Shown here: piece after piece, positions 367 to 43,963 of the stretch
How positions within the stretch are numbered: position 1 is the stretch's first letter
How the letters are laid out: every line of letters starts with the position of its first letter
Origin: Herpetosiphon giganteus
Lineage (GTDB): Bacteria > Chloroflexota > Chloroflexia > Chloroflexales > Herpetosiphonaceae
Direction of reading: 5' to 3'
DNA length: 43,963 nucleotides
Assembly (NCBI RefSeq): GCF_016907925.1
Contig: NZ_JAFBCZ010000042.1
Span: forward strand, 1-43,963
The notes under the pieces: model-generated
Told to the model about the DNA's origin: nothing
What the model saw: the letters and a program-made list of their open reading frames with translations, nothing else
Databases searched by the model: none
Translations under genes and position numbers: made by a program

Positions 367-1584
367 ATGATCCATTCGACCTATGCAGAGGTATTTAATC
401 AGCAATTCGTCCAAGATCCCTTCCCAACCTATGCTGCACTCCGTACCGAAGCCCCTGTTCACCGCATTACCCTACCCGATGGCCGTGGTTTATGGATGAT
501 TACCCGTTTTGAAGATGTTAAGGCTGCGCTGAAAGATCCGCGTTTTATTAAGAATTGGCGCAAAGTGCTTACCCCTGAAGAGCAAAAGCTCATGCCCGTG
601 ATGCCGCCAGTCGTTCAATTGTTGTTCAAACATCTGTTGGCGATCGATCCGCCTGATCATACGCGGATACGCGGCATGGTGCATAAAGCGTTTACACCGC
701 AATTGGTCGAGCAACTGCGGCCACGGATTCAGCAAATTGCCGATGAATTGCTTGATGCCATGCTGGCTGGTCCACGCAGCACCGATTTGCTCACAGCCTA
801 TGCCTTTCCCTTGCCGTTGACCGTGATTGCCGAATTGTTGGGCATTCCCTTGGATCATCGCGAGAAATTTCGCTATTGGTCGGGCTTGGTTGTGACTGTC
901 GATCCCTCGCCAGATCGTTTTACGCGCATGGCGGGTGAGATGGAAGAATTTGGCAATTATCTGCGTGAGTTATTTGCGATCAAACGGGCCAATCCCACTA
1001 ACGATTTGACTAGTGCCTTGGTGCAAGTTGAAGAAGCTGGCGATAAACTGACCGAGCAAGAAATGTTTTCGTTGGTGTTCTTCTTGTTGATTGCAGGCCA
1101 CGAAACCACAGTTAATTTGATTGGCAATGGCATGTTGGCCTTGTTGCAACATCCTGAACAATTGAAATTGCTGCGCGAAAATCCCGACATGATTCGCAAC
1201 ACCATCGAAGAATTGCTGCGCTTCGATAGCCCGGTCGAAACCTCAACCCTGCGTTGGGCGCGCGAAGATCTGGAATTCGCTGGGGTAACAATTCCGCGTG
1301 GTGAGCAAGTGCTGGCCGTAATTACCTCGGCGAATCGTGATCCGAACTATTTTGTCGAGCCTGATCAGCTTGATATTACGCGCAGCGAGCATAACCACAT
1401 TGCCTTTGGCCATGGTATTCACTATTGTTTGGGAGCGCCATTGGCTCGCCTTGAAGGTGCAATTGCGATCAATTCGTTGGTGCAACGGCTGCCAAACTTG
1501 CGTTTGGCCGTGCCCGCCCAAGACCTGATTTGGCGGCCTGGCATGCTGATTCGCGGTATGATCGAACTGCCGGTTAAGTTTTAG
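367..1584 (+). CDS. Cytochrome P450 monooxygenase
   Basis: A soluble 405-residue bacterial class I cytochrome P450, which would insert one oxygen atom from O2 into an organic substrate using electrons from a ferredoxin/reductase pair. The oxygen-activating I-helix motif AGHETT is at residues 243-248 (Glu246, Thr247). The K-helix ExxR is Glu282-Arg285. The haem-binding loop FGHGIHYCLG places the proximal thiolate at Cys354. There is no signal peptide or membrane anchor, and the length is typical of the soluble family. A strong RBS (AGAGGAGG) precedes the ATG. No ferredoxin or reductase is adjacent, so the redox partners must be encoded elsewhere and the substrate cannot be read from the context. 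It seems monocistronic: a stem-loop follows, and then a separate promoter for the next genes. Confidence 0.95.
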   Translation: MIHSTYAEVFNQQFVQDPFPTYAALRTEAPVHRITLPDGRGLWMITRFEDVKAALKDPRFIKNWRKVLTPEEQKLMPVMPPVVQLLFKHLLAIDPPDHTRIRGMVHKAFTPQLVEQLRPRIQQIADELLDAMLAGPRSTDLLTAYAFPLPLTVIAELLGIPLDHREKFRYWSGLVVTVDPSPDRFTRMAGEMEEFGNYLRELFAIKRANPTNDLTSALVQVEEAGDKLTEQEMFSLVFFLLIAGHETTVNLIGNGMLALLQHPEQLKLLRENPDMIRNTIEELLRFDSPVETSTLRWAREDLEFAGVTIPRGEQVLAVITSANRDPNYFVEPDQLDITRSEHNHIAFGHGIHYCLGAPLARLEGAIAINSLVQRLPNLRLAVPAQDLIWRPGMLIRGMIELPVKF

Positions 1585-1589
1585 AAATA

Positions 1590-1629
1590 GCTGGCATTGT
1601 TATAGGGTCATCTGTATAACAATGCTAGC
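1590..1629 (+). terminator. Long stem-loop after the P450 gene
   Basis: GCTGGCATTGTTATA at 1590-1604 pairs with TATAACAATGCTAGC at 1615-1629. This gives a 15-bp stem with one G-U pair and a 10-base loop. No T-run follows, so it may be a weak terminator or mRNA 3'-end stabiliser. It sits just before the promoter of the next operon. Confidence 0.55.
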
Positions 1630-1647
1630 ACTAAAAACAATAACTAG

Positions 1648-1676
1648 TTGACAGGATGAAATATTAATGTTATTTT
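1648..1676 (+). promoter_or_regulatory. Sigma-70 promoter of the MauE/MauD/Cys-peptide operon
   Basis: A perfect -35 TTGACA (1648-1653), an ideal 17-base spacer and TATTTT (1671-1676) as -10. It would give a leader of about 57 bases before the MauE-like start at 1740. Confidence 0.6.
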
Positions 1677-1739
1677 GATATAAGCTTCTGATTTGGGAAA
1701 ATATATCACTATAAATTCTTCTTTGAGAGAGAGGATGAT

Positions 1740-2321
1740 ATGATTGAACTTCCGATTTCTATTGTTCTTTTTTTGATATTTAAGCTTCTACTCCTCATAA
1801 TTTTTTTACCTTCAGCTTTGAGTAAATTGTCTAATCTGACGAATTTTAAGCATGCCTTATTACAATATCAAATCGTTCCAGTACCTATCGTATGGCTATT
1901 TGTTGTAACTATTCCTGTTGCTGAATTGATCTTACCAATATGTTTGCTTCTGGGTATTGGTCATTTCATCTCAGCATATTTACTTAGCCTGCTGCTTATT
2001 ATCTTTATTGTGGCAATTGGTATTAACCTTTTGCGGGGTAATCGAGTATCATGCGGCTGTAAAGGAGCCTCTGCCAGCGAGCAGATTAGTTGGGGTTTAC
2101 TGATCCGCAATTGTTTGTTAAGTCTGATAGCCTTTCTCATTGGGATCTTTGATCAATTCCAAGTCGTCAACGAATCTTCAATCATTCCTCTCCTGACTCG
2201 CATACTGGTTAATCCGCTTACCTTATTCCTAACAATGGGTATTTTAGTAAGTATATTTTTGATACTTAAATTAATCGAAACTGGAAGCTCTTTTTTTATT
2301 CATGGGTTTAGTAATAATTAG
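1740..2321 (+). CDS. MauE/DoxX-family redox-associated membrane protein
   Basis: A 193-residue integral membrane protein with about five hydrophobic spans (near residues 5-27, 50-70, 75-97, 120-140 and 155-178). The arrangement matches the MauE family, which helps form or isomerise disulfides in exported proteins, classically the methylamine dehydrogenase light chain. The hallmark loop SCGCKG (Cys105, Cys107), followed closely by ISWGLLIRN, is visible; these cysteines are the likely redox pair. The RBS is the purine run GAGAGAGAGG. It is followed after 8 bases by the thioredoxin-like gene and then the cysteine-rich Tat protein, so the three probably work as one relay. The gene is clearly AT-richer than the P450 gene, which hints at a separate origin. 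The family call is confident; the substrate is inferred from the neighbour. Confidence 0.85.
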   Translation: MIELPISIVLFLIFKLLLLIIFLPSALSKLSNLTNFKHALLQYQIVPVPIVWLFVVTIPVAELILPICLLLGIGHFISAYLLSLLLIIFIVAIGINLLRGNRVSCGCKGASASEQISWGLLIRNCLLSLIAFLIGIFDQFQVVNESSIIPLLTRILVNPLTLFLTMGILVSIFLILKLIETGSSFFIHGFSNN

Positions 2322-2329
2322 GAGCGTAT

Positions 2330-2893
2330 ATGAGTGGTTTTTGGTTAGTATCATATATTACCATGTGGGTTTTATTAATAGGCTTAAGCTTCGTTATGAT
2401 GAGTATTATGCGTAATATGGGTACTCTTTATCAGCGAATAGAACAAAAGAATGTACAACCTGATACAAGAATATCCAAGTATGAAATAAATGAACAAGTT
2501 GAGCCACTAACAGTTACTACGATACAAGGCGTAGCGTTTGATTTAGTAGCGCACGTTGATCAAAAAACTGCAATTATTATCATTAGCACGCACTGCGCGC
2601 CTTGCCGCGACCTGATCAAATATTTAGCAGATAACCCAGATAATGATCCACTAGATTTAGGAGTTGAAAAAACGATTGTTATCAGTATGAGTAATAATCG
2701 AGCACTTCAAGATCTTTTAGAAGAATATAGCATTGATTCGAAGAATCTATCCTTCTATTGTGATACCACAGATTCTTTGAGTCGAGTATGGGGTATTTAT
2801 TCGACCCCTACCATTATTACTGTTGATGCTACCGCAAAAATTACGAACCAACATGTAGGATTTTCTTTACCCCAAGTAGCCCTTCCTGCATAA
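2330..2893 (+). CDS. MauD/TlpA-like membrane-anchored thioredoxin-fold protein
   Basis: A 187-residue protein with an N-terminal membrane anchor (about residues 4-26), a short linker and a thioredoxin-like domain facing outward. The active site is THCAPC, with Cys89 and Cys92 as the CxxC pair. The cis-proline expected for the fold is Pro160 in the segment STPTIITVD. Size and layout match MauD-type or TlpA-type thiol-disulfide oxidoreductases, which reduce or reshuffle disulfides in exported proteins. It starts 8 bases after the MauE-like stop, with a short GGAG-type RBS, so translation is probably coupled. MauD normally partners MauE, and that order is kept here. The gene is AT-rich like its neighbours. 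I infer that its client is the eight-cysteine protein encoded next. Confidence 0.85.
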   Translation: MSGFWLVSYITMWVLLIGLSFVMMSIMRNMGTLYQRIEQKNVQPDTRISKYEINEQVEPLTVTTIQGVAFDLVAHVDQKTAIIIISTHCAPCRDLIKYLADNPDNDPLDLGVEKTIVISMSNNRALQDLLEEYSIDSKNLSFYCDTTDSLSRVWGIYSTPTIITVDATAKITNQHVGFSLPQVALPA

Positions 2894-2968
2894 TTTTTGC
2901 TTTGGTAGGTGAATTAACGTGGCGTTTCGTGCGACTTGCATGTGACGATATATTGAGGAGGTTCATTT

Positions 2969-3325
2969 ATGGGTTGGTTTAATCGGAAATCTAAAGCCAA
3001 TACGCAATCGGTTCTTGATCAGCTTACCGAAGCTGCTGCAGTAAGTTTATCGCGTCGAAGTTTTTTCAAGAAAGCAGGAGGAGGAGTTGCCGCGCTAGGC
3101 ATGGCATTAGCAGTCAAAGATACGTCCGCTGCTACTAATGCTACTTGTACGAAAACAACTGAAAGCTGTGGTTCTGTCCGAACCTGCGTTGCATGTTCAG
3201 GTGGTAAAGTTAGAACCAAGGATGCTTATTATTATTGGTGGAATTGCAACGATGGTTCACGCCAATGTTTAACTGCTCCAGGTGATACAGTCTATGGAAG
3301 CTGTGTAGCAGCTTGCCCTCAATAA
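2969..3325 (+). CDS. Tat-exported cysteine-rich mini-protein, MauA-like spacing
   Basis: A 118-residue precursor with a textbook twin-arginine signal: SRRSFFK at residues 28-34, a Gly/Ala-rich hydrophobic stretch to about residue 49, and probable cleavage near Ala54-Ala55. The mature part is only about 63 residues and has eight cysteines (60, 67, 73, 76, 93, 100, 112, 116), an even number that suggests four disulfides. The pattern Cx6Cx5CxxCSGG, then Trp90-Trp91, Cys93 and DG, recalls the N-terminal half of the methylamine dehydrogenase light chain (MauA), also a Tat substrate that needs MauE and MauD. This protein is roughly half MauA length, and no heavy chain is nearby, so it is not a normal MDH subunit. 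The RBS TGAGGAGG is strong. Function is unknown: a redox cofactor carrier, an enzyme subunit or a secreted peptide are all possible. Confidence 0.85.
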   Translation: MGWFNRKSKANTQSVLDQLTEAAAVSLSRRSFFKKAGGGVAALGMALAVKDTSAATNATCTKTTESCGSVRTCVACSGGKVRTKDAYYYWWNCNDGSRQCLTAPGDTVYGSCVAACPQ

Positions 3326-3333
3326 CATAGCCT

Positions 3334-3377
3334 AAACAGACTCTACCTTTTTCTGATAAATTGGGTAGAGTCTGTTT
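3334..3377 (+). terminator. Perfect 14-bp stem-loop between Cys-rich gene and ABC genes
   Basis: AAACAGACTCTACC (3334-3347) pairs perfectly with GGTAGAGTCTGTTT (3364-3377) across a 16-base loop. The 3' arm ends in TTT but no longer T-run follows. It starts 8 bases after the Cys-rich gene and ends 15 bases before the permease start, so partial termination or mRNA processing could make the small protein more abundant than the transporter. Confidence 0.65.
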
Positions 3378-3392
3378 ATAGAAGGTAGTATT

Positions 3393-5840
3393 ATGGCTTC
3401 ATTGAAGTCGCTGAATACGATTCGCTTGTCAGTAACCGTGTTGAGCATTGCGTTGGCAGCTGGTTTGCTAACCTTGCTGATCGGCATGTATCGTGGGATT
3501 GAGTTGCAATATCACCAACTTGTTGATGGAGCAGTAGGCGAACGAATTACCGTGATTCTTACCTCTGATTCGGTCAATGCTGGGGTTGACGAACTTAATC
3601 GCTTGAAGCCCGAAGGGCTTGATTTACTGACAAGTCCTTTTGCTGGCTCGTATGTTGACCTGAATATGGCAACACTCCAGCCCGCGCATTTAGATATTCA
3701 GCAGCTTAACAATGTCCCCGGCATCAAGGGTGTTGCTTGGTCAAATTATGCTCAAGCATTTGGGATTAATGGCACGATTAATTTGCCAGTCCAACGGGTT
3801 CCACGCGATTTTTTTACGGTTCAAAAACTACCATTGACTGCTGGCAGCCTTGATTCAGCAACAGACCATGTGGTGATCGGTGCAAAACTTGCTGAATATT
3901 TCTTTCCTCAGCAATCACCAATTGGGCAGGTGCTTAGCTCAGACCCTAATACGCCGCCACCAGGGGCCTTTCCGACAGTTGCGAAGATGCATCCTGGGGT
4001 CGCAACTTCAGGCTTAGGCCATAGTTACAGCTTGACCGTAACTGGGGTATTGGCTCCAGTGAATCCAGCCCGTAACGTCTTTGATCGCGCTTTTGATACG
4101 ACTATTTTTCTGATTGACAATAGTTTACCCACAAATTTGGCGAGTGTTGTCGTCGAGCCAGAGGCTGGCCAACAAGCTGCAGTAATACGCCAACTACAAA
4201 CGCAATTAGCTGAAAATTTGCCTGAAGGCTGGCGGGTTGTTGTTGAAAGTGAACAAGCAAGCTATCAGCAAGCCCAAATGCGTGATTTACAACAACTGGT
4301 CAACAGTAATTTCCTCTGGATTGTGGCAATTGCCCTGATTCTGATGGCATGCACGGTTGGCATTAGTAGTTATTTGGCAATTGTGCTGAAACGCCGCAGC
4401 TTGGGCATTCAACGCAGCCTCGGGGCAACCAAAGTTCGCTTGTTTCGCTCATTAATTGGCGTTGGCTTATTGATTGGTGGGGTAGGTGTTGCGAGTGGTT
4501 TGCTCCTTGCTTGGATTAGCCAAGGTTTTTTTGCGCGCTTAAGTGGCATTGCTCCGTTGCTTGACGTACAAACGCTGGCGATGAGTTGCCTCGTAATGCT
4601 GGCGATGGTAGCTGGCTCGTTTGGGCTAACGAGTTGGTATTTGCTCCGCGCAGCCCCAAGTGCAATGATTCGTGAGCAACTTGGCACGACATTGGCCAAA
4701 CATCGCTGGTTGGTTGGTGGGGCTAATGTGATGCTTGGCATCATTGCCTTGATTATGCTTTTAGGTTTACGCAGCGGCTTGGTCGCCCGCATCGATCAAA
4801 TTCTTGGTGGCACAGGTGCGAAAACAATCAGTGCAGTCTCATGGACATCTGGCTTGGAGCCGTTTAAGCCTGCGATCTACCTAACCCATGAAGATTATGC
4901 CGCAGTTAAGGCCGAATTTCCCGCTTGGCAGGTTGCTTGGCGACGCTCACCAATGTACACCGTGATTGAGGCAAGTGCGAATCTAGCTGATTTGCAGCCA
5001 ATTTCTTTGGCGTGTGGACGCTGGTTGAATGCCGAGGAAGAAACCAAGGCCCGTCAGGTGATTGTTTTGGGCTATGATCGGGCGCTTGAAATTGCTAAAG
5101 AACGCAAACTGGCGAATGTTTGTGATCTGAAACAATGGCGCAATCTGCCAGTGGTTGGGGTTTTGGCTGGCCTTGATTCATGGCCATTGATGATTGCGCA
5201 AGGCTTCTCGCCGCGGGCTGTCTACGCACCATTGCAGAGTAATATCAATCCAACGATCGATGACCCTCAAAGCTACTTTCCCAAAGATATGTATCTGATC
5301 AACGGCGAAATTTTGGTGCAGATTCCCGCGACGACTGATCTTGATCAAGCAGCCAAGCGCTTAGAACAATTTTTGGCTGCTCGGCATCCTGAGGGCGTGC
5401 CAAATCTCATTTTGCCAGCAGGCATAACCCAAGAACTTTTAGCACAACGAACCCAGATTTATTTGCTAGCTGGCCTGATGGTAAGCTTATGTTTATTGAT
5501 CAGTGGCGTTGGCTTGATGAATCTCACCTTTATTAGCATTCTGAGTCGGGCACGTGAGATCGGGATTCGGCGAGCAGTTGGCGCAACCAAACAGACCATT
5601 TTACGCCAAATTTTGACTGAAACAATCAAGATCTGTTTGGGTGCTGCGCTGCTTGGGGGTGTGATTGGCCTCCTGCTGGCACGAGTGTTACAAACCCAGC
5701 TGGGTTGGCCACCAACGATGCCTTGGCATTTGCTGGGTGTCGCTGGCGTTACCGCCTTGCTGATTGGTGCTACGTTTGGCGTTTTACCTGCATGGTGGGC
5801 GGCCAATCTGCCCCCAACGCGCGCGATCAATGTTCAATAA
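3393..5840 (+). CDS. MacB/FtsX-type ABC transporter permease
   Basis: An 815-residue permease with duplicated architecture. It has an N-terminal span (about residues 10-32), a large external domain, three spans of a first FtsX unit (about 307-332, 351-375, 394-418), a span near 443-460, a second external domain and a C-terminal FtsX unit (about 687-713, 746-766, 778-803). The conserved cytoplasmic coupling segment appears twice, as RRSLGIQRSLGATK and REIGIRRAVGATK. Such permeases drive lipoprotein or peptide movement across or out of the membrane by mechanotransmission rather than by forming a simple channel. The ATPase gene starts within about 20 bases of the stop. The position directly after the Tat mini-protein suggests a linked role, but the cargo is unproven. 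GC is closer to the genome norm than in the three upstream genes. Confidence 0.88.
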   Translation: MASLKSLNTIRLSVTVLSIALAAGLLTLLIGMYRGIELQYHQLVDGAVGERITVILTSDSVNAGVDELNRLKPEGLDLLTSPFAGSYVDLNMATLQPAHLDIQQLNNVPGIKGVAWSNYAQAFGINGTINLPVQRVPRDFFTVQKLPLTAGSLDSATDHVVIGAKLAEYFFPQQSPIGQVLSSDPNTPPPGAFPTVAKMHPGVATSGLGHSYSLTVTGVLAPVNPARNVFDRAFDTTIFLIDNSLPTNLASVVVEPEAGQQAAVIRQLQTQLAENLPEGWRVVVESEQASYQQAQMRDLQQLVNSNFLWIVAIALILMACTVGISSYLAIVLKRRSLGIQRSLGATKVRLFRSLIGVGLLIGGVGVASGLLLAWISQGFFARLSGIAPLLDVQTLAMSCLVMLAMVAGSFGLTSWYLLRAAPSAMIREQLGTTLAKHRWLVGGANVMLGIIALIMLLGLRSGLVARIDQILGGTGAKTISAVSWTSGLEPFKPAIYLTHEDYAAVKAEFPAWQVAWRRSPMYTVIEASANLADLQPISLACGRWLNAEEETKARQVIVLGYDRALEIAKERKLANVCDLKQWRNLPVVGVLAGLDSWPLMIAQGFSPRAVYAPLQSNINPTIDDPQSYFPKDMYLINGEILVQIPATTDLDQAAKRLEQFLAARHPEGVPNLILPAGITQELLAQRTQIYLLAGLMVSLCLLISGVGLMNLTFISILSRAREIGIRRAVGATKQTILRQILTETIKICLGAALLGGVIGLLLARVLQTQLGWPPTMPWHLLGVAGVTALLIGATFGVLPAWWAANLPPTRAINVQ

Positions 5841-5861
5841 TTGATAGGGAAGGAATTGATT

Positions 5862-6542
5862 TTGGACCATGTGATTCAACTCGATAAGGTTGCCAAAATA
5901 TTCTCCAAAGGTTCAAGTTCAGTTGTAGCTGTTGATCATGTGTCATTACAGATTGAAGCTGGTGATTTTTTGGCGATTATGGGTTCATCAGGCTGCGGAA
6001 AATCAACATTATTGCAATTGGTGGGTGGGCTTGATACGCCAACCAGTGGCTGTATTAATTATGGCCCAGTTGATATTGCGCAAATGAATGATGCGCAGCT
6101 ATCCCAATTTCGTAATCGCCAAGTTGGCTTTATCTTTCAAGCCTATAATCTCTTACCTGAATTGACTATTTTGGATAATGTGGCTTTGCCATTGAAATAT
6201 GCTGGCGTATCCAAGCCAGAGCGCCGCAAACGCGCGGCGCAAGTGCTTGAACAGGTGGGTTTGGCTGAGCGTATCCAGCATATGCCTAGCGAATTAAGCG
6301 GTGGTCAAGAGCAACGCACTGCAATTGCGCGCGCCTTAGTTACCAAACCGGCGATTATTTTGGCCGATGAGCCTACTGGCAATTTAGATAGCCATAATCG
6401 TGACCATATCCTTGAGCTATTTCACGCGATCAATCAAGCTGGCACTACCTTTTTGATCGTGACCCATGATCCGGTCGTTGGTGCTGCTGCACAACGGATC
6501 TTACCAATGCACGATGGTAAACTTGGAGAAGCTGCCCAATAA
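5862..6542 (+). CDS. ABC transporter ATP-binding protein (LolD/MacB class)
   Basis: The motor subunit for the upstream permease, about 226 residues. Walker A is GSSGCGKST (residues 41-49, Lys47). The Q-loop is in FIFQAYNLLPELT. The signature is LSGGQEQR (145-152), with Glu where Gln is usual. Walker B is IILADEPTGNLD, and the switch His is in IVTHD. I chose the TTG at 5862 because a GGGAAGGA RBS lies 7 bases upstream; an in-frame TTG at 5841 has no RBS and no ATG exists in this part. The gene follows the permease immediately and ends at a strong terminator, so the operon closes here. The EPTGNLD form is typical of the LolD/FtsE/MacB exporter subfamily. Confidence 0.93.
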   Translation: MDHVIQLDKVAKIFSKGSSSVVAVDHVSLQIEAGDFLAIMGSSGCGKSTLLQLVGGLDTPTSGCINYGPVDIAQMNDAQLSQFRNRQVGFIFQAYNLLPELTILDNVALPLKYAGVSKPERRKRAAQVLEQVGLAERIQHMPSELSGGQEQRTAIARALVTKPAIILADEPTGNLDSHNRDHILELFHAINQAGTTFLIVTHDPVVGAAAQRILPMHDGKLGEAAQ

Positions 6543-6556
6543 CCAGCATTTAAGCA

Positions 6557-6594
6557 AAAAGAGCACCCATGAAAATTCTCATGGGTGCTCTTTT
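6557..6594. terminator. Bidirectional intrinsic terminator
   Basis: GAGCACCCATGA (6561-6572) pairs with TCATGGGTGCTC (6579-6590) around a 6-base loop. AAAA precedes and TTTT follows, so a U-run is made in both directions. It ends the ABC operon on the plus strand and the convergent amidase gene on the minus strand. Confidence 0.9.
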
Positions 6595-6599
6595 GTTGC

Positions 6600-8840
6600 T
6601 TATTTGCCAACTACTGGTAAGAAGGTCGGAATGCCAAGCCGCGAACGCAGCAGCAAGACTGCGTTGCGTTGGGGGTCGGCGCTGGTTTGCGCTTTAACCC
6701 AAACTTGATCGCTGCTCGGGTTTTGGCCTGCTGGTAGATCGACGCGCAGCGTGATCGTTTGGCTGGCGTTTGGCCCAAGGCTGCTTGGCACGGCGCTGGT
6801 GAGCGTCGTTGGCCAGGTATTGCCCGTAAGGCTGAGGCTAATTGGCACGGTTTGTTGACTTAGATTGCGCAAGGTTAGCGTGTAGGTGATGCTGTTGCCA
6901 CTGATGCTGCCTTGCTCAGTTTGTGGCGTGGTTAAGCTGATGATGCTTGATTGCACTTCAACATCGCTTGCTTTGACAAAGCCAAAGCGATGATTGAAAT
7001 TAATTTGATAATACTTGGTTTGGCCGCTTACCACGACGTGCGAACGTGGATCAAGCGTCGGCGTGTAGACTGGCGACGAGTAGTAGGTGCTGGTGTACAG
7101 TTTGGTCGCCACCACCACATTATCAGCAGGCAGGGTGTAAATTGGCGTAATTGCTTGCGGCGTGATGCCTTGTGGATAGGCGGCAGCCTCAGGATAGGCC
7201 CGCCCATAGACTGGAATGCTGGCTTGGCCAACTTTGGGTCGAACTTTTAGCCCTTGGCCAGCAGTGGTGTTCACGCCATTTGGGTTATGAAACCAGGCCT
7301 TTTGGCCGCCAAAATAAATTGCTTGCCAGGCATCTTGTTGCCCCGCCGAAACATAGGTTTGGCCAGTAACCGCTTTATTGGCCCAGTTGTTGGCGTGGGT
7401 TGGCGTTGAACCAATGTATTGATTGGTAATTAATGGCGAGTTGGCGTTAGGCTGAGTGTGTAAATAGACAAAATTAGCGCTTTGAGTTGGCACTGCGCGA
7501 CAATCATTGCTGGTGTAGCAGTAGGTCATGGCTGGCATGTTGGTTGCAAAATCAGGATTGATCGTTAGTAATTGTGGGTCGGGATTGCTCATTTGGGCGG
7601 GGCCACCACGCACTAAATCCATATAATGCGCCCAATCCCAAAACGGACCTGGGTCCCAGTGCATGCCTGCTTGATGCTGTGGTAGCGGGCCGGGCAACTC
7701 ATCGTGGCCAATAATATGGCTGCGATCAAGCGGAATTTGGTATTTGTCGGCGAGATAGCGCGTGAGGCGGGCCGAAGCTTGATACATTGCTTCGCTATAC
7801 CAGCTTGCGCCTTCGATTGCATAGCCTTCGTGTTCCAACCCAATCGCATGGCCGTTCACATCCCAATTGCCTGCATGCCATGGCACATTTTTGTTCTCGA
7901 CCATTTGGGCAATGTGGCCATCGCTGGCGCGAACGACATAGTGGGTTGAGGCCTTGGTCAATGGGTTTTGAAAGACATTGATCGTTTGGGTATAGGTAAT
8001 TTCGGTGTCGTGAATCAAAATGTAGCGATAATCCAAGCCATCAGCTGGACGATTGGCTAAATCGTAGTTGCCATAATCGCCACGATCATCGGAATTGTTC
8101 AAGGCATAGGCAGCAGGAACCACTTCGCAATCAAGCGTCGCTGGACAATCCAATGGGAAATCATCGCCCTGCAAGAGTGGCAAATTGGCGGCGCTTTGGC
8201 GATTGAGCGTAACTGCGCTTGGCGCAAGGCTCAGCTGTTCGCCATTTTCAAGCCTGCGGCTTACGCCTTGTTGGAGGGTTAGATAGACGCGATCGGCGAA
8301 GGCAAAGGCAGTTGAACGCTCTTTGCTGCCACTAAACAAAACCACTGCGCCATACCAATCAGCGAGGTTGGTTGGCAGTTTGGGGTTGATGCTGCGGCTA
8401 TATTCAGCCAAGAGCGCCGCGCCACCACGAATATTCTGCACTGGATCGTTGATCAAGGCACTGGTTGGTTGATCAATCAATTTAGCTGCTCGAGCAAGGG
8501 TTTGAAATTCGGCAGGCTGCTTGAATGGCTCAGCCCAATCAAGCCCTTTGCTCGCCTGCCAATGGCCAAGATCGATTTGGGTTAAGTGCATAACTCCATA
8601 GCCGCCGCTGGTGCTTGGCTGGCCTGAATGCTGCTCCCAGCGCGAAAGATTGTAGCTCAAGGCCAACAACAATTCGCTTGGCACATCAAACTCGGCAGCA
8701 GCCTGATCAAAGGCCGCTTGCAGCGTGCTTGGGGCAGGTGTTGGCGAGTTGGCGAAGCTTGGCAGCGGCAGATAGCCCGCTAGCAGCCCTAAAACCACAA
8801 CAACGATCACGATTCTTGATCGTAACCACAATCGGTTCAT
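6600..8840 (-). CDS. Secreted N-acetylmuramoyl-L-alanine amidase (Amidase_2)
   Basis: A secreted protein of about 746 residues. It has a Sec signal peptide (RSRIVIVVVVLGLLAG then SFA), then a region near residues 40-200 resembling a lysozyme/transglycosylase-like fold (ALSYNLSRWEQH, GGYGVMHLTQ), and a central Amidase_2/PGRP zinc domain. In the latter, ILIHDTE, THYVV and HWDPGPFWDW supply the expected metal ligands, with GLEHEG and GHDELPG also present. The C-terminal third looks like beta-rich wall-binding and Ig-like domains. It would cleave the bond between N-acetylmuramic acid and the stem peptide, for wall turnover or for lysing prey. The last residues, TFLPVVGK, resemble the tail shared with other secreted proteins here. 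GAGGAAG fits the second of two adjacent ATGs (8840) better than the first (8843). Confidence 0.88.
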   Translation of the reverse strand: MNRLWLRSRIVIVVVVLGLLAGYLPLPSFANSPTPAPSTLQAAFDQAAAEFDVPSELLLALSYNLSRWEQHSGQPSTSGGYGVMHLTQIDLGHWQASKGLDWAEPFKQPAEFQTLARAAKLIDQPTSALINDPVQNIRGGAALLAEYSRSINPKLPTNLADWYGAVVLFSGSKERSTAFAFADRVYLTLQQGVSRRLENGEQLSLAPSAVTLNRQSAANLPLLQGDDFPLDCPATLDCEVVPAAYALNNSDDRGDYGNYDLANRPADGLDYRYILIHDTEITYTQTINVFQNPLTKASTHYVVRASDGHIAQMVENKNVPWHAGNWDVNGHAIGLEHEGYAIEGASWYSEAMYQASARLTRYLADKYQIPLDRSHIIGHDELPGPLPQHQAGMHWDPGPFWDWAHYMDLVRGGPAQMSNPDPQLLTINPDFATNMPAMTYCYTSNDCRAVPTQSANFVYLHTQPNANSPLITNQYIGSTPTHANNWANKAVTGQTYVSAGQQDAWQAIYFGGQKAWFHNPNGVNTTAGQGLKVRPKVGQASIPVYGRAYPEAAAYPQGITPQAITPIYTLPADNVVVATKLYTSTYYSSPVYTPTLDPRSHVVVSGQTKYYQINFNHRFGFVKASDVEVQSSIISLTTPQTEQGSISGNSITYTLTLRNLSQQTVPISLSLTGNTWPTTLTSAVPSSLGPNASQTITLRVDLPAGQNPSSDQVWVKAQTSADPQRNAVLLLRSRLGIPTFLPVVGK

Positions 8841-8843
8841 CAT

Positions 8844-14960: not shown

Positions 14961-16808
14961 TTAGCGTTGTCGCCCCATGCGTTGGCCAACTTGGGTCACG
15001 ATCTCGCTGACGCTAAAGGTTGCGTAGGCCGTGCCGCCAGCGTTGGCAGTTGTTTGGGCATAGCCGCTGCTGCTGCTTTCGAGCGTGCCGCCACTATTGA
15101 TCGTATAACTTGCGCCTTGTTGCAAGGCTGGCGACGAGAAGACCAAGGCTTGATATTGTTTGCGTGGCGTAAAGCTCACAAGCGCTTGACCAGATTGATC
15201 GAGAATTTGCACAAGGTTGCCAGCAGCTTGAGCCGAGCTATAGTTGATTAGCACTGAAGATTGGGTTGAATTGCTATCCGGCGCTTGCACCATGCCTGCG
15301 CTGCCAGCGGCAACCAAGGTTCCGCCATTCAAGGCAAAGCCGCCATCGTAATCCAGCGCGCCGTTCATTTGAGCGGTTGGCCCATGCACCAGTACCAAAC
15401 CAGCGTTCATCACGATCGAACCATTGGCATCCAAGCCGTCGCCAGCAGCATCGACGACCAACGTACCGCCGTTGATATACAAGAAATAATTGCCGGCAGC
15501 AAAACTATCGTTGCGGCCTGGCCGGCCCATTCCACCACCTTGCATGCTCGAACCGTCGCCACCAGCCACGTTCACGCCATCATCTTGGGCCACAAGGCTA
15601 ATATTGCCTTCGTTGATCGTAATGACGGCGCTTTCCAAGCCCTCGTAGGAGTTGCTGATCGTCAGATCACCACCGTTGATTGTGAGCGTTGCATCGGCAT
15701 GTACGCCATCGTCGCCAGCAGCAAGGCCGATTGTGCCAGCGTTGATCGTCACATTGTTATCGGAATGGATCGCATCTTCGGCTGCATCAATCGTGATCGT
15801 TGCCTCGGCAATCACCAAATTTTGGCCCGCCTTCAAGCCTTTGGCTGAGGCATCGGCGCTGATACTTGTGCTACTGCCGCCACCTGCGCTAATCGTCAGC
15901 TCGCCAGCATCGATCAAAATATCGGTGATTGCGCTCAAACCATCGCCGCCAGCCGTAACATTCAACTTGCCGCCAGCAATCGAAATATAGCCTTTGCTGG
16001 CATCTTCTTCATTATCAGCGCTTAGGCCATCGCCTTGGGCATTGATGTTAATTGTGCCACCGTTGATCACCAGATAATCTTTGCCGCGCAAACCATCATC
16101 CAGCGCGGTGATGTTGATTGTGCCACTGTTGATAATTAAGCCATCTTTGCTGCTAATGCCATCGTTGCCATTGGCCTGAATCGTCAAACTGCCATTGCCA
16201 GCAATTGAAAGATCGGCCTTGCTGTAGAGCGTGGCATTGGGCAAATCTTCAGTGGTGGTTGCATTCGCCGACGCATCAACCGTATCGGAAAGCGTATTTT
16301 GGCTTTCGTCGGCCAGAATAATCGCCATCTGTTCAGCTTGCATAATTGCAATTGGCGCGTTGCCGGAGCTATGAATCGTAGCGCCATTCAAAATCAAGCG
16401 CACTAAATCTTTATCAGCGGTATCCACAATAATTTGGCCATCGTTGAGCTTGCCACTGAGTTGATAGGTGCCTGCTGCGCTAATCGTGGCGGTCGTGCCA
16501 TCGATCTTCACATTTGGGTTATTGGCGCTGATGCTGCTCTCGTTGAGCTTAATTTCAACTAAATCGGCATTTTGCCAAGCCAAATCGGCGGCTGTGTCGT
16601 GAGGCGTGGCTTTGTTCGCCAGCGCTTCGTCAATTGATGCGACGGTTGGCACAACAACGGTTGGGCTGCTTGTGCTGGCTGAATTTGAACTTACAGCTTG
16701 GCCGCCACTAGCCGAATTGACGGTGGTTGTGGTGGTTTGGTTCGTCGAACAGGCCGTTAGTATGGCAACCAGCATGCTGGTGATTAATGCTCGGGCAAAT
16801 GGTTTCAT
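14961..16808 (-). CDS. Carbohydrate-binding beta-helix lipoprotein (Cthe_2159-like)
   Basis: A 615-residue exported lipoprotein. The signal ends in the lipobox LTAC (Cys20), followed by a Ser/Thr-rich tether. The body is dominated by repeated units such as GNDGISSKDGLIINSGTINI, DDGLRGKDYLVINGGTINI, GDGLSA and AEDAIHSDNNVTINAGTI. Each carries Asp-Gly and Ile-Asn pairs that would bind calcium along a parallel beta-helix. This is the signature of the Cthe_2159/DUF4353 family, whose founding member binds pectin-like polygalacturonate. A Gly-rich loop (GGMGRPGRNDS) lies past the middle. It probably sits on the cell surface and captures acidic polysaccharides. The ATG at 16808 has GGAG 8 bases upstream; a longer TTG frame is less likely. 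Repeat-rich DNA follows the stop. Confidence 0.87.
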   Translation of the reverse strand: MKPFARALITSMLVAILTACSTNQTTTTTVNSASGGQAVSSNSASTSSPTVVVPTVASIDEALANKATPHDTAADLAWQNADLVEIKLNESSISANNPNVKIDGTTATISAAGTYQLSGKLNDGQIIVDTADKDLVRLILNGATIHSSGNAPIAIMQAEQMAIILADESQNTLSDTVDASANATTTEDLPNATLYSKADLSIAGNGSLTIQANGNDGISSKDGLIINSGTINITALDDGLRGKDYLVINGGTININAQGDGLSADNEEDASKGYISIAGGKLNVTAGGDGLSAITDILIDAGELTISAGGGSSTSISADASAKGLKAGQNLVIAEATITIDAAEDAIHSDNNVTINAGTIGLAAGDDGVHADATLTINGGDLTISNSYEGLESAVITINEGNISLVAQDDGVNVAGGDGSSMQGGGMGRPGRNDSFAAGNYFLYINGGTLVVDAAGDGLDANGSIVMNAGLVLVHGPTAQMNGALDYDGGFALNGGTLVAAGSAGMVQAPDSNSTQSSVLINYSSAQAAGNLVQILDQSGQALVSFTPRKQYQALVFSSPALQQGASYTINSGGTLESSSSGYAQTTANAGGTAYATFSVSEIVTQVGQRMGRQR

Positions 16809-16835
16809 GCAAAAACTCCACAATAGAATTCAAGG

Positions 16836-16856
16836 TTGAGCAAATTGGCTGCTCAA
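16836..16856. promoter_or_regulatory. Inverted repeat upstream of the Cthe_2159-like gene
   Basis: TTGAGCA (16836-16842), 7 bases, TGCTCAA (16850-16856). It lies 28-48 bases before the minus-strand start and could be an operator or the base of a small 5'-leader hairpin. Confidence 0.35.
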
Positions 16857-16915
16857 ACGTTTAATCTATGGCTAATTCTAGCTAGCAAGTGTGAGGAACT
16901 AGTGAAGGGATTATG

Positions 16916-16944
16916 TGGTTGCTGTGTGGGATGCGCTGTATACT
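16916..16944 (+). promoter_or_regulatory. Promoter of the tandem cyclase gene
   Basis: TGGTTG (16916-16921), a 17-base spacer and TATACT (16939-16944). The expected transcript start near 16951 supports translation from 16984 rather than from an earlier in-frame codon that would overlap the promoter. Confidence 0.5.
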
Positions 16945-16983
16945 GGATTTGCATCTATCCTGTGGTCAAGGAGTCGGACTATT

Positions 16984-18510
16984 ATGCCAACCCATCCATT
17001 AACTTTGCTAGAGCCGCGGCTACGTTCATTGTTGCCAGCAATGTTGTATGCCTCAGTTTGGGTCGAGCCAATCCCTGAGCGCTTAATTCAGGTTTTTGAG
17101 CATTTGCGCACGATGCGGCGCATGCTTGGCGATTATGTGCCGCGCTTTGTGGCCGAAACGCCACCAACGCCAGGCATCGCGCGTTCTGCGTGGCAAGAAG
17201 GCACGTTAATGTTTACCGATTTGGCGGGCTTTACCAGCTTGATGGATGCCCACGGCGATGCCCAGGCCACTGACCAAGTGTTGAATGTGTTGAATACCTA
17301 TTTTGCCCAAATGGTCGAAATTATTAGCAAATCTGGCGGTAATTTATTGGAATGGACTGGCGATGCGATGCTGGTGCAGTTTCCTGCTGATGGCGAGCGC
17401 AACCATACCGCGTTGGCGGTACGGGCTGGGCTGCGGATGCAACGGGCAATGACCCAATTTCATCAATTAACCACCCCGCAAGGAGTTATTTCGCTTGGGA
17501 TGCGGATTGGTCTGCATCGTGGGCGTTTTATTGCTGCCGATATTGGCACGCCCAAACGGATGGAATATGTGCTGTTGGGCGAGGCGGTGCAAATCACCAA
17601 ATATGCTGAGGGTGCTGGCGAAGTTGGTAGTGTGTGTTTGAGCCAAGCTGCGCAACAAGCGATTGCTGGTTTGTATCGCTGCGAGCCGTTGGCCGATGGT
17701 TATGCCTTGGTCTGTGATGATTTGGCTGAGCAAACCTTAGGCGAGTACGATATTGCGCCGACCAAACGCCGCCAAGCTGGCGGATTTTTGCTCGATCGCA
17801 GCGTTGAGGCGCTGGTGCGCGAAATTGAAGAAATGTTGACCGCGATTGAGCCATTGGCCAGTTTTCTGCCCTTATCGGTGTTGGGCTTGTTGGTTGAAAC
17901 CGCTGCCCAGCGCAAAGTGCCGCCGCAATGGCTGCAACTACCAGTCATTTATATGAACCTGAGCGGCATCAGCGACGCGCCCGAATATCTCGACCCAGCC
18001 GAAGAACCATTGTTGATTACTGCTTATTCGCGAATTTTTGCGCTGATCAATGCAGCAGTGGAGACGACAGGCGGCATGCTCAAAAACGTCACCTACGATA
18101 AATCTGGCTCAAATATTTTGATTCATTTTGGGGTAACTGGGGCGCATGTTGATGATGCGCTGCGGGCGGCCCAAACTGCGCTTACAATCCAGCGCTTAGT
18201 TGCACAATCGCCTGAATTGCATTTTCGCAACTATCAACAACGGATTGGTTGCAAAATTGGCCTCGCCTATGGCCCAGCATTTGCCGCCGAAATTGGCGAG
18301 CCACGCGGGCGGCGCGAGTTTAATTTGCTTGGCGATGTGGTCAATACTGCTGCGCGCTTGATGGCCGCCGCCGAACCTGGCCAGATTTTGCTTGAGCCTG
18401 GTTTGCAGCAGTTAATTCATAATCGGCTGCGTTGTGTCGATTTGGGTACGATTCAGTTGAAGGGTAAAGCCAGCCCAACCGCTATTTTTAGCCTGCATCC
18501 CGCTGAATGA
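16984..18510 (+). CDS. Tandem class III adenylate/guanylate cyclase-domain protein
   Basis: A soluble protein of 508 residues with two class III cyclase folds. Domain 1 (about 72-250) keeps both metal-binding aspartates: Asp79 in MFTDLAGF and Asp127 in EWTGDAML. It has Gln203 and Tyr207 where the transition-state Asn and Arg belong. Domain 2 (about 318-490) lacks the aspartates (Asn325 in YMNLSGI, Ser376 in DKSGSN) but carries Asn454 and Arg458 in DVVNTAARL. Together the halves could make one composite active site, as in mammalian C1/C2 cyclases and soluble adenylyl cyclase. Base-selecting residues look unusual: Lys373 is near its expected position and Asn replaces the usual Asp/Thr. The product could be cAMP, cGMP or neither. 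The start at 16984 has AAGGAG upstream; there is no membrane span and no attached effector domain. Confidence 0.88.
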   Translation: MPTHPLTLLEPRLRSLLPAMLYASVWVEPIPERLIQVFEHLRTMRRMLGDYVPRFVAETPPTPGIARSAWQEGTLMFTDLAGFTSLMDAHGDAQATDQVLNVLNTYFAQMVEIISKSGGNLLEWTGDAMLVQFPADGERNHTALAVRAGLRMQRAMTQFHQLTTPQGVISLGMRIGLHRGRFIAADIGTPKRMEYVLLGEAVQITKYAEGAGEVGSVCLSQAAQQAIAGLYRCEPLADGYALVCDDLAEQTLGEYDIAPTKRRQAGGFLLDRSVEALVREIEEMLTAIEPLASFLPLSVLGLLVETAAQRKVPPQWLQLPVIYMNLSGISDAPEYLDPAEEPLLITAYSRIFALINAAVETTGGMLKNVTYDKSGSNILIHFGVTGAHVDDALRAAQTALTIQRLVAQSPELHFRNYQQRIGCKIGLAYGPAFAAEIGEPRGRREFNLLGDVVNTAARLMAAAEPGQILLEPGLQQLIHNRLRCVDLGTIQLKGKASPTAIFSLHPAE

Positions 18511-41862: not shown

Positions 41863-43963
41863 GTTTTAAACCCCTCCACGGCGGGGCCGTGAGATGAACA
41901 TTGATGAAAACGCTAGCAAAGCTCCCGAAGAACTCAGTTTTAAACCCCTCGCGGTCGGAGCAGTGAGATGAACAATGCGACGCACAAAATCCAGTAGGTG
42001 TATTATTCTGGTTTTAAACCCCGCGCGGTCGGGGCAGTGAGATGAACAGCTAGGAGGACCGAGATGGCTGGTTTGGCAGCTTTGGCGTGTTTTAAACCCC
42101 GCGCGGTCGGGGCCGTGAGATGAACACCCAAAAGGAGCACCTCGATGGAGACCAACAAGGTTTTAAACCCTGCGCGGTCGGGGCAGTGAGATGAACGTAA
42201 TCTACGTCTACGGCGAAGTGATGGAAACAACCTAGTTTTAAACCCCGCGCGGTCGGGGCAGTGAGATGAACGGCTGGTTCGACTGGATATCTGCGGGGAC
42301 GGCGCGAGTTTTAAACCCCGCGCGGTCGGGGCAGTGAGATGAACTATTGACTGCGTACAGGTTATGGCACAACCGTGCTCGAGTTTTAAACCCCGCGCGG
42401 TCGGGGCAGTGAGATGAACCTACCTAAACTGAATCCATGGCTGGCGGCGGTGAGCCGAGCGTTTTAAACCCCGCGCGGTCGGGGCAGTGAGATGAACTTT
42501 TACTATGACGAGAATGGATACCGTGCTCTACCTGGTTTTAAACCCCGCGCGGTCGGGGCCGTGAGATGAACTATGGCACCGATTACAGGTTGTATCGCCA
42601 ATATCGCGTTTTAAACCCCGCGCGGTCGGGGCCGTGAGATGAACACAAGCTAACTCAAGACGAAGGCACAACGCCTGAGTTTTAAACCCCGCGCGGTCGG
42701 GGCAGTGCGATGAACGTCCGAGGGTGTGAATGCTCGGTTCATTATCGTTCGTTTTAAACCCCTCGCGGTCGGGGCAGTGAGATGAACACTTTTGTCCTAA
42801 CTGCGGAAACGAACAAACGGTAGAGTTTTAAACCCCTCGCGGTCGGGGCAGTGAGATGAACGGGTAGTTCAACAACTAGAAGAGAATGGGTATTAAGTTT
42901 TAAACCCCTCGCGGTCGGGGCAGTGCGATGAACTTGAGAATTTTCTCTACACTTGGTTCGGCAATACGTGTTTTAAACCCCGCGCGGTCGGGGCAGTGCG
43001 ATGAACGTCCGAGGGTGTGAATGCTCGGTTCATTATCGTTCGTTTTAAACCCCGCGCGGTCGGGGCAGTGCGATGAACTTGAGAATTTTCTCTGACCGAA
43101 CCAGCGCCGACTGGGGCGGCGGGGTGTGGTGTTTTAAACCCCTCGCGGTCGGGGCAGTGAGATGAACGCGATCATTGAAAGTTTCCAAGATGGTGAATGG
43201 GAAGAGTTTTAAACCCCTCGCGGTCGGGGCAGTGAGATGAACGATGTGGATGTAATTCGGATCGCGAATGCCCCAACTGTGTTTTAAACCCCGCGCGGTC
43301 GGGGCAGTGAGATGAACTTGCATCAGCACGGGAATATTTTCCAAACCTTTACAAGTTTTAAACCCCTCGCGGTCGGGGCCGTGAGATGAACTTTGATCGG
43401 ATTGTTGGTAGCATTTGGGGGCTTCCAATAGGTTTTAAACCCCTCGCGGTCGGGGCCGTGCGATGAACTTGAGAATTTTCTCTACACTTGGTTCGGCAAT
43501 ACGTGTTTTAAACCCTGCGCGGTCGGGGCCGTGAGATGAACATGTATTTACTGGAATCATCAGATGGTGCCTTCATGTTTTAAACCCCTCGCGGTCGGGG
43601 CCGTGAGATGAACTCGCACTCATCATCGCTGTGTTTCTTCCAGACTTCGGTTTTAAACCCCTCGCGGTCGGGGCAGTGAGATGAACGAAGCACTGCTTCC
43701 CATAAAGTCAAAGTGACTTTTTGTTTTAAACCCCTCCACGGCGGGGCAGTGAGATGAACGGGCCTTACCCTCCTGATCGCAGGCAAGGGCCTGTACGTTT
43801 TAAACCCCTCGTCGTCGGGGCAGTGAGTTGAACAAATGTTTGACGAAGACATGACGTCAGAGGAAAAAGTTTTAAACCCCTCGTCGTCGGGGCAGTGAGT
43901 TGAACAAATGTTTGACGAAGACATGACGTCAGAGGAAAAAGTTTTAAACCCCTCGTCGTCGGG
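41863..43963 (-). CRISPR. CRISPR array, 28 full repeats plus one partial
   Basis: 37-bp repeats start at 41863, 41937, 42011, 42089, 42160, 42235 and onward to 43869, with a partial repeat at 43941-43963, so the array continues outside the window. Plus-strand repeats begin GTTTTAAACCCC and end GATGAAC. Most spacers are 34-41 bases; one is 52. Variable positions lie in the hairpin loop (GCGCGGTC, TCGCGGTC, TCCACGGC, TCGTCGTC), then CAG or CCG, then GTGAGATG, GTGCGATG or GTGAGTTG. Read on the minus strand, a CCCCG/CGGGG stem is followed by exactly eight bases, TTTAAAAC, like a Cas6-made crRNA handle. With the terminator at 41733-41763 this suggests transcription on the minus strand from a leader beyond the right edge. 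No cas gene is present, so the type is not assigned. Confidence 0.97.

What the first reader, a model, noticed from the sequence alone, without database searches (positions are those of the whole stretch)
1740..3325. MauE/MauD relay dedicated to one Tat-exported eight-cysteine mini-protein
Three adjacent genes encode a MauE-like membrane protein (Cys105/Cys107), a MauD/TlpA-like thioredoxin (Cys89/Cys92) and a Tat precursor whose mature part of about 63 residues has eight cysteines. Its Cx6Cx5CxxCSGG pattern and nearby Trp90-Trp91 recall the N-terminal half of MauA, but MDH heavy chain, MauG and other mau genes are absent. By inference the MauE/MauD pair has been reused to fold a different, possibly cofactor-bearing or secreted, protein.
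Basis: partly seen in the sequence, partly recalled or inferred. Interest (0 to 1): 0.78.

Follow-up and report, generated by a model that had tools for sequence, protein, structure and literature searches.

The report
Folding cassette for exported cysteine-rich mini-protein
A small three-gene cassette carries one exported, cysteine-rich mini-protein together with what look like its two private disulfide-forming helpers, borrowed from the machinery that matures a methylamine-oxidising enzyme; relatives keep the helpers and the export tag but swap the cargo.

Summary
In detail: MauE-like (1740-2321), MauD/TlpA-like (2330-2893), and a 118-aa Tat precursor with eight mature cysteines (2969-3325). 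The central inference, that the MauE/MauD pair serves a different client, is well supported. The MauA and cofactor hints are not: profile comparison finds MauA likeness only in the Tat leader, Trp90-Trp91 are not conserved, and the genome has no MauA or heavy-chain match above cut-off.

New evidence: (1) The trio is a 1.79-kb low-GC insertion between two hairpins; same-genus genome G034 has the site without it. (2) The module recurs in other Chloroflexota: 11 of 13 strong family genes lie beside MauE and/or MauD (partly by construction), one does not, one is untestable. (3) Mature parts share no detectable identity beyond cysteines; 12 of 13 have an even number. (4) One locus has two paralogues with identical 50-aa leaders (11 synonymous changes) but unrelated cargos.

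Best reading: a dedicated oxidative-folding module for interchangeable Tat-exported disulfide-rich mini-proteins, perhaps secreted effectors. The general idea is already in print as a prediction for Streptomyces (decRiPPter, PMC7794033), so this is a new variant of a known kind.

The parts
1586..3379 (+). Inserted cassette (whole unit), GC 0.375 against 0.51 (P450), 0.49 (permease and ATPase) and 0.52 (rest of window)
   Evidence: blastn of the window against same-genus loci: G034 aligns up to 1585 and resumes at 3380; GC, and no significant trio DNA in the fetched loci of five same-genus genomes
1590..1629 (.). Hairpin at the upstream edge (15-nt arms, 93% complementary), after the P450 gene
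   Evidence: the repeat finder I2
1648..1676 (+). Promoter-like site TTGACA-17-TATTTT with TG before the second hexamer
   Evidence: consensus scan, not evidence of function (11 sites found, mean 5.4, sd 3.0 in shuffles)
1740..2321 (+). MauE-like membrane protein, 193 aa, Cys105-x-Cys107
   Evidence: PF07291 83.4 bits; alignment with relatives; profile match to MDH MauE E 2.7e-26
2330..2893 (+). MauD/TlpA-like membrane-anchored thioredoxin, 187 aa, Cys89-Ala-Pro-Cys92
   Evidence: alignment A3; profile match to MDH MauD E 2.9e-13; TIGR02661 only 14.6 of 188.6 bits
2969..3325 (+). Tat-exported cysteine-rich mini-protein precursor, 118 aa; leader about 1-55 (cleavage site judged by eye), mature part with 8 Cys from residue 60 (nt 3146)
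3333..3378 (.). Hairpin at the downstream edge (15-nt perfect arms, 16 nt between them), perhaps the end of the trio's transcript
   Evidence: the repeat finder I1; not listed by the terminator scan, which allows loops of 3-8 only

Best explanation
The trio is a self-contained, horizontally acquired cassette that makes one secreted disulfide-rich mini-protein. The precursor is exported by Tat; its long leader is the conserved, interchangeable part. On the outer face of the membrane, MauD (a membrane-anchored thioredoxin, CAPC) makes or rearranges disulfides in the released mini-protein, and MauE (a membrane protein with a CxC) re-oxidises or otherwise recycles MauD, as the homologous pair is thought to do for MauA. 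The product is a small protein with four disulfides. Because only the cysteine framework of the cargo is kept while leader and helpers are conserved, it is most likely a secreted effector, such as a bacteriocin-like or predation factor. Shown: gene content, homology of E and D, recurrence as a module, presence as one discrete insertion, leader/cargo decoupling. Inferred: Tat export, disulfide formation, direction of electron flow, secretion. The effector role is a guess at about 0.4.
For: Site without the trio in G034 and without trio, permease and ATPase in four other same-genus genomes. Module recurrence in G321, G310, G322 (fragmentary E and D), G010 and G220. E-D-client order equal to that of three annotated mau clusters and of L047 and L048. 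MauE/MauD homology. The nine MauD-like proteins that accompany mini-proteins form one side of the MauD tree, 92/90 support, 91% of 200 bootstrap trees. Even Cys number in 12 of 13 mature parts (P 0.0017 for a coin). Non-Cys identity of mature parts 0.23 against 0.245 (sd 0.115) in a shuffled control, leader core 0.43, over 12 proteins. Two paralogues with 0 amino-acid and 11 synonymous changes over 50 leader codons and no detectable similarity after them. Parallels: decRiPPter Streptomyces families (PMC7794033, passages read), Priestia plasmids with a 6-Cys peptide, ATP-grasp clusters in AL-N1.
Against: One family member (G310:C876) has no MauE/MauD on its 7.4-kb contig, though its genome has the pair elsewhere. 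One of 13 has 13 cysteines. A single-sequence search with the mini-protein finds no strong relative: 2 of 301 phylum genomes, the own one and a weak leader-region match. AlphaFold gave no usable model (pLDDT 51.5, pTM 0.26). No immunity gene or receptor is identified in the trio. Six of the 13 genes were found by starting from MauE, so co-occurrence is partly by construction; of the four testable genes found by mini-protein profiles alone, three are beside MauE/MauD, one of those three in a locus already known. Similar leaders occur on larger Cys-rich proteins, and 14 of 18 such loci fetched show no MauE- or MauD-like frame, many on short contigs. The MauE tree does not resolve the mini-linked MauE as one group.
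Confidence: 0.7

Rival explanations
1. The mini-protein is a shortened MauA that carries a Trp-derived quinone (TTQ-like) or another cofactor and works as a small redox protein.
For: Same gene position as mauA after mauE-mauD; similar Tat leader (probability 93%, E 2.9e-7); CSGG and a Trp pair in the window protein.
Against: Mature parts not detectably homologous to MauA (probability 0.2%, E 0.33); PF02975 not among the matches of the 9 members of A4 or of the window protein; Trp not conserved; no PF02975 match over cut-off and no PF06433 match at E 1 in the genome.
Confidence: 0.04
2. The mini-protein is an exported metal-binding or redox-buffer peptide whose cysteines are kept reduced by MauD, as a TlpA-type reductase would do.
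For: The MauD-like protein resembles ResA, a reductant (model score 24.1 of 170 bits); weak resemblance of the MauE to the HvfX copper-peptide maturation model (19.4 of 80 bits).
Against: No conserved metal-ligand spacing seen in the alignment; cysteine number varies from 6 to 16 but is even in 12 of 13; the cargo diverges to background outside Cys.
Confidence: 0.15
3. The mini-protein is a structural or cell-surface protein of the producer, for instance an envelope part acting with solute-binding lipoproteins.
For: In G321 (C29, and twice in C4), G322 and G432 a large SBP_bac_1 lipoprotein directly follows the mini gene.
Against: No such gene in the window cassette, nor among the genes listed beside the mini genes in G010 and G220; a hypervariable cargo is unusual for a structural part.
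Confidence: 0.2
4. The three genes are neighbours by chance, the mini-protein being a stand-alone Tat protein.
For: Similar Tat leaders occur on other Cys-rich Chloroflexota proteins, most without a MauE/MauD frame on the stretch fetched; one family member stands alone on its contig.
Against: The trio is one discrete insertion; MauE/MauD neighbours in five other genomes.
Confidence: 0.03

Closest known systems
mauE-mauD-mauA of the methylamine dehydrogenase cluster (Paracoccus denitrificans PD1222, L061)
   Same: Same gene order; homologous MauE and MauD; client with a long Tat leader and many cysteines
   Different: Client not detectably homologous in its mature part; no MauA or heavy chain over cut-off in the genome and no other mau gene in the cassette; MauD-like protein falls far below the MauD equivalog cut-off
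decRiPPter candidate families of Streptomyces with mauE (one also mauD) and a predicted precursor of at least 8 Cys (PMC7794033; passages read)
   Same: MauE/MauD without other mau genes, beside a Cys-rich small protein; same idea of reuse
   Different: Reported as RiPP candidates in Streptomyces; the word Tat does not occur in the main text; the supplement with precursor sequences was not read, so sequences were not compared
Priestia megaterium plasmid cluster (L059, L060)
   Same: Cys-rich small peptide near MauE and, in L059, a redoxin
   Different: 60-aa peptide with 6 Cys and no twin arginine; an ABC transporter and an extra thioredoxin-like gene in between
Conserved-leader, hypervariable-cargo peptide families in general (for example class II bacteriocins, conotoxins; recalled, not tested)
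   Same: Leader constrained, mature part free to change except for cysteines
   Different: Tat leader, and MauE/MauD helpers in the same operon

Membership tests
MauE (PF07291) | Pfam profile score above gathering cut-off | tested here: met
   83.4 bits, cut-off 27
MauE (PF07291) | CxC pair and homology to MDH MauE | tested here: met
   C105/C107 invariant in 4; profile E 2.7e-26 over 132 columns
MauD (TIGR02661) | Equivalog score of at least 188.6 bits | tested here: not met
   14.6 bits for the window protein; 21.9 for relative L027
MauD (TIGR02661) | Homology over the N-terminal anchor and thioredoxin domain, CxxC | tested here: met
   profile-profile E 2.9e-13 over columns 1-181; C89/C92 invariant in 6
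MauA / MDH light chain (PF02975) | Profile match | tested here: not met
   not listed for the window protein at E 5 (HMMER's filters drop most matches above 0.1), nor for any of 9 members at E 0.1
MauA / MDH light chain (PF02975) | Homologous mature part | tested here: not met
   hhalign of mature parts, 12 minis vs 4 MauA: probability 0.2%, E 0.33
MauA / MDH light chain (PF02975) | Two conserved Trp forming TTQ (recalled) | tested here: not met
   0-2 Trp per mature part in 13, no common position (alignment)
MauA / MDH light chain (PF02975) | Heavy chain (PF06433) in the genome | tested here: not met
   no match at E 1
Tat substrate | Twin-arginine leader with hydrophobic region | tested here: met
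   SRRSFFKK, then AGGGVAALGMALAV; TAT_signal_seq matched by 6 of 9 members at E 0.1, the window protein scoring 16.6 against a cut-off of 16.7. Export itself untested
MauE/MauD-linked Cys-rich peptide clusters (decRiPPter type) | MauE, with or without MauD, no other mau genes, precursor with at least 8 Cys | tested here: met
   window: 8 Cys; only light chain and heavy chain were searched for in the genome, neither found over cut-off; criteria read in PMC7794033
MauE/MauD-linked Cys-rich peptide clusters (decRiPPter type) | Precursor sequence homology | not tested
Bacteriocin | Killing activity and cognate immunity | not testable with these tools
   no immunity gene in the window trio; activity needs an experiment

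The most novel reading that the evidence does not exclude
A Tat-dependent family of interchangeable disulfide-rich effectors: one constrained Tat leader is recombined onto unrelated cysteine-rich cargos, nearly always delivered with a private MauE/MauD folding pair, and the whole moves between Chloroflexota as a small cassette used in competition or predation.
Probability: 0.3. Interest if true: 0.75.

Novelty: new variant of a known kind. Interest (0 to 1): 0.56.

Why it matters
MauE and MauD are known mainly as helpers of one enzyme, and how they work is unresolved (PMC7794033 calls MauE's role speculative and MauD's unclear). Here they come with a roughly 60-residue client with four possible disulfides and nothing else, a far simpler test system for what the pair does than methylamine dehydrogenase. 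If the leader/cargo swapping is general, it also marks a searchable source of natural disulfide-rich mini-proteins and a portable oxidative-folding kit for making them.

Tried and rejected
MauA homology of the mature part was tested by family profile, pairwise BLASTP and profile-profile comparison and rejected. A link of the trio to the neighbouring P450, ADOP-type permease and ABC ATPase was rejected: the P450 is present without the trio in all five other same-genus genomes examined, and permease plus ATPase without the trio in G034. A lactococcin-972-type reading of the ABC pair was dropped for that reason (its ATPase also scores 207.1 of 254.85 bits for TIGR03608). Structure prediction was uninformative, so no fold search was run. 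The PDB sequence search gave only chance-level matches, best E 0.34. With the mini-protein, a genome-contig scan and a plasmid search found nothing; a plasmid search with the window MauE found nothing, with the L027 MauE it gave 15 records, 12 of Paracoccus, of which I opened five regions. The viral-contig scan with the MauD profile found no relative. Weak A4 matches in the class (20 places, E 1e-9 to 1e-5) look mostly like leader matches to larger Cys-rich Tat proteins; I fetched 18 of those 20; 3 have a MauD-like and 1 a MauE-like frame nearby; all 20 are left out of the 11-of-13 count. One of the 3 (L135) was put into the MauD tree.

Literature: nine searches, seen as listings of titles and abstract starts; only PMC7794033 was opened, and only passages of it. 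No listing showed a Tat-exported mini-protein with MauE/MauD, but subscription journals are mostly not held. The 1997 MauE/MauD paper was not held; what I say of it is what PMC7794033 says, plus recall.

Full report
What is there. The window lies in an unnamed 6.16-Mb genome. Three genes lie head to tail: 1740-2321, 2330-2893 and 2969-3325. The first is a MauE (PF07291, 83.4 bits), the second a membrane-anchored thioredoxin with CAPC, the third a 118-residue Tat precursor with eight cysteines after residue 59.

Homology of the helpers. The MauE alignment of four module members matches five MDH MauE proteins at E 2.7e-26, and the MauD alignment of six members matches five MDH MauD proteins over columns 1-181 at E 2.9e-13. 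By NCBI's own cut-off the window protein is not MauD proper (14.6 of 188.6 bits). In a tree of 19 MauD-like proteins the nine that accompany Tat mini-proteins (one of them, L135, from the weak set described below) form one side of a branch (92/90; 91% of 200 bootstrap trees), apart from MDH MauD and from the MauD-like proteins of ATP-grasp clusters; the MauE tree (17 rows) leaves this open.

The client is not MauA. MauA and the mini-protein share position in the operon and a Tat leader with a long front part. Full-length profile comparison aligns only columns 18-44 against 10-36, the leader (probability 93%, E 2.9e-7). Mature parts alone (12 mini-proteins, 4 MauA) give probability 0.2% and E 0.33. 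PF02975 is not among the matches of any of the nine members of A4 at E 0.1; the genome has no PF02975 match above cut-off (two chance-level ones, best E 0.06) and no PF06433 match at E 1. Mature parts carry 0-2 Trp without a common position. The TTQ-like idea therefore has no support.

Recurrence. A single-sequence search with the mini-protein hit 2 of 301 phylum genomes, the own one and a weak leader-region match. Searching relatives with the window MauE gave matches in 6 of 60 genomes including the own one, and in none of five other same-genus genomes. Reading out their surroundings showed, next to MauE-MauD pairs, small Tat proteins with the same kind of leader and other cargos in G321 (contigs C3, C4, C15, C29) and G310 (C270, where the mini gene is divergent from MauE). 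A MauD-profile search of 400 genomes of the phylum at E 1e-25 hit the own genome and G010, which has MauE-MauD-mini as well. A mini-protein profile (A1) over 400 genomes of the phylum gave 5 genomes at E 1e-4: the own one; G220, with MauD and MauE next to it; and G246, G154 and G353, whose weak matches lie in unrelated Tat proteins or an unresolved frame without MauE on the stretches seen. The fuller profile A4 over 158 genomes of the class gave 18 genomes at E 1e-5: 11 matches at E 1e-10 or better in five genomes, and 20 weaker ones. Adding G010 and G220, there are 13 strong family genes in seven genomes. Eleven lie beside MauE and/or MauD, at most about 3.3 kb away (G000 1, G321 6, G310 1, G322 1, G010 1, G220 1); in G322 only fragments of E and D are open, and in the C4 locus of G321 the MauE frame has a stop. 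One (G310:C876) has neither on its 7.4-kb contig, and one (G432) sits at a contig end. Six of the 13 were found by way of MauE, one is the finding itself, one came by MauD. Of the four testable ones found by mini-protein profiles alone, three are beside MauE/MauD (G220, G322, and the second copy in the already known C4 locus of G321) and one is not (G310:C876).

A mobile cassette. A P450 homologue is found in all seven genomes searched (91-100% identical in the six of the genus, 52% in G061). In four same-genus genomes (G094, G274, G102, G070) the P450 is followed directly by the amidase gene that lies at 6600-8843 in the window (Amidase_2); in G034 the permease and ATPase lie between; only in the window is the trio there too. 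The window aligns with G034 up to base 1585 and again from base 3380. The 1.79 kb between have GC 0.375 against 0.49-0.52 around, are bounded by hairpins at 1590-1629 and 3333-3378, and have no significant DNA match in the fetched loci of the five relatives; the whole-genome searches for mini-protein, MauE and MauD were negative there too. So the permease and ATPase are not parts of the unit, and the three genes arrived, or were kept, together. Loss in G034 cannot be excluded by this alone, but absence from all five same-genus relatives makes gain the simpler reading.

Leader and cargo are decoupled. Over 12 mini-proteins (66 pairs) the leader core is 43% identical on average; mature parts outside paired cysteines are 23% identical, the level of a shuffled control (24.5%, sd 11.5, 200 draws). 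Over all 13 the number of cysteines ranges from 6 to 16 and is even in 12; nine end in C-x2-C with at most two residues after it, and ten have an inner CxxC. A coin would give 12 or more even of 13 with P 0.0017, ignoring kinship. In G321:C4 two copies share 209 bp at 93% identity, from about 55 bases upstream of the start to codon 51; the first 50 codons differ by 11 synonymous and no amino-acid changes, and the rest shows no similarity in DNA or protein. Point mutation alone would hardly erase the cargo while leaving so young a leader, so recombination of leaders with cargos is the likelier cause (inference).

How it most likely works. Tat delivers the precursor across the membrane; signal peptidase frees the roughly 60-residue cargo; MauD introduces or shuffles disulfides, and MauE takes the electrons or recycles MauD. 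This is carried over from the role proposed for the pair in MDH maturation, as told in PMC7794033 (passages read), and is not shown here. The direction of electron flow is open, since TlpA-like proteins can be reductants. For the cargo's use, the pattern of conserved leader and helpers with free cargo, several copies in one genome (G321), the insertion, and parallels in a plasmid cluster with a Cys-rich peptide and an ABC transporter and in ATP-grasp peptide clusters with their own MauE/MauD-like pair speak for a secreted effector. No killing or immunity function has been shown, and I put this at about 0.4.

What is known. PMC7794033 reported three Streptomyces candidate families with mauE, one also with mauD, each with a predicted precursor of at least 8 cysteines and no other mau orthologs, and proposed that these proteins modify the precursors. 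The finding here is thus a new variant: a Tat-leader, Chloroflexota branch with the mau gene order, a swappable cargo, and a documented site without the insertion. My paper searches listed no description of it, within an open-licence library only.

Noticed in passing
G321 loci L031, L032, L034, L035 (and L040 of G310): A second kind of MauE/TlpA pair. In L031, L032 and L034 it sits with an MvdD-like ATP-grasp protein, an SDH-type ClpP-like protease and an ABC transporter, near small Cys-rich proteins, several with a common start (M-S-x-L-F-A-F-x-V/A, as in L031 and L040); in L035 with an ABC transporter, signal-peptidase-like genes and Cys-rich peptides. They look like Cys-rich graspetide-type clusters.
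   Followed up: partly
L027:6024-8594 (-), L028:12359-15115 and 15645-18344, L124:1289-4021 (-), L123:693-3533 (-): SBP_bac_1 lipoproteins of 850-950 aa (two matched stretches in four of five) directly follow mini-protein genes; no permease was noticed next to them (not searched for).
   Followed up: partly
L026:9876-10289, L033:7908-8315 (-), L057:2461-2736 (-), L058:9576-9911: A small protein without Pfam match, with a recurring [FY]-x-G-[RH]-x-x-[VI]-E-x-W motif (by eye), follows the mini-protein gene in four modules; in L026 and L033 the motif occurs twice. Candidate partner or immunity protein.
   Followed up: partly
window 1584-6600: The spot between the P450 and the amidase gene has three states in the genus: empty (four genomes), permease-ATPase (G034), trio plus permease-ATPase (window): perhaps an insertion hotspot.
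   Followed up: yes
L051:1282-1794 (-), L130:3719-4474 (-), L133:5080-5982: An extended front part of the Tat leader (FD-x2-T-[KR]-x2-A-x3-SRR) occurs on larger Cys-rich Tat proteins (12, 36 and 46 Cys), two of them next to a TlpA-like gene; MauA has a similar, not identical, front part. It may be a general mark of disulfide-rich Tat cargo.
   Followed up: partly
window 42400-43963: CRISPR-like array, at least 21 repeats of about 37 nt (GTTTTAAACCCC...GATGAAC, spacing about 73) in this stretch, running off the contig end, with variable repeats and duplicated spacer blocks.
   Followed up: no
L059:3251-3433 and L060:3261-3443 (Priestia megaterium plasmids): A 60-aa peptide annotated as hypothetical, with 6 Cys, near a thioredoxin-like protein, an ABC transporter, MauE and (L059) a redoxin: a likely disulfide-bonded peptide cluster; in L060 a Tn3 transposase lies where the redoxin would be.
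   Followed up: partly
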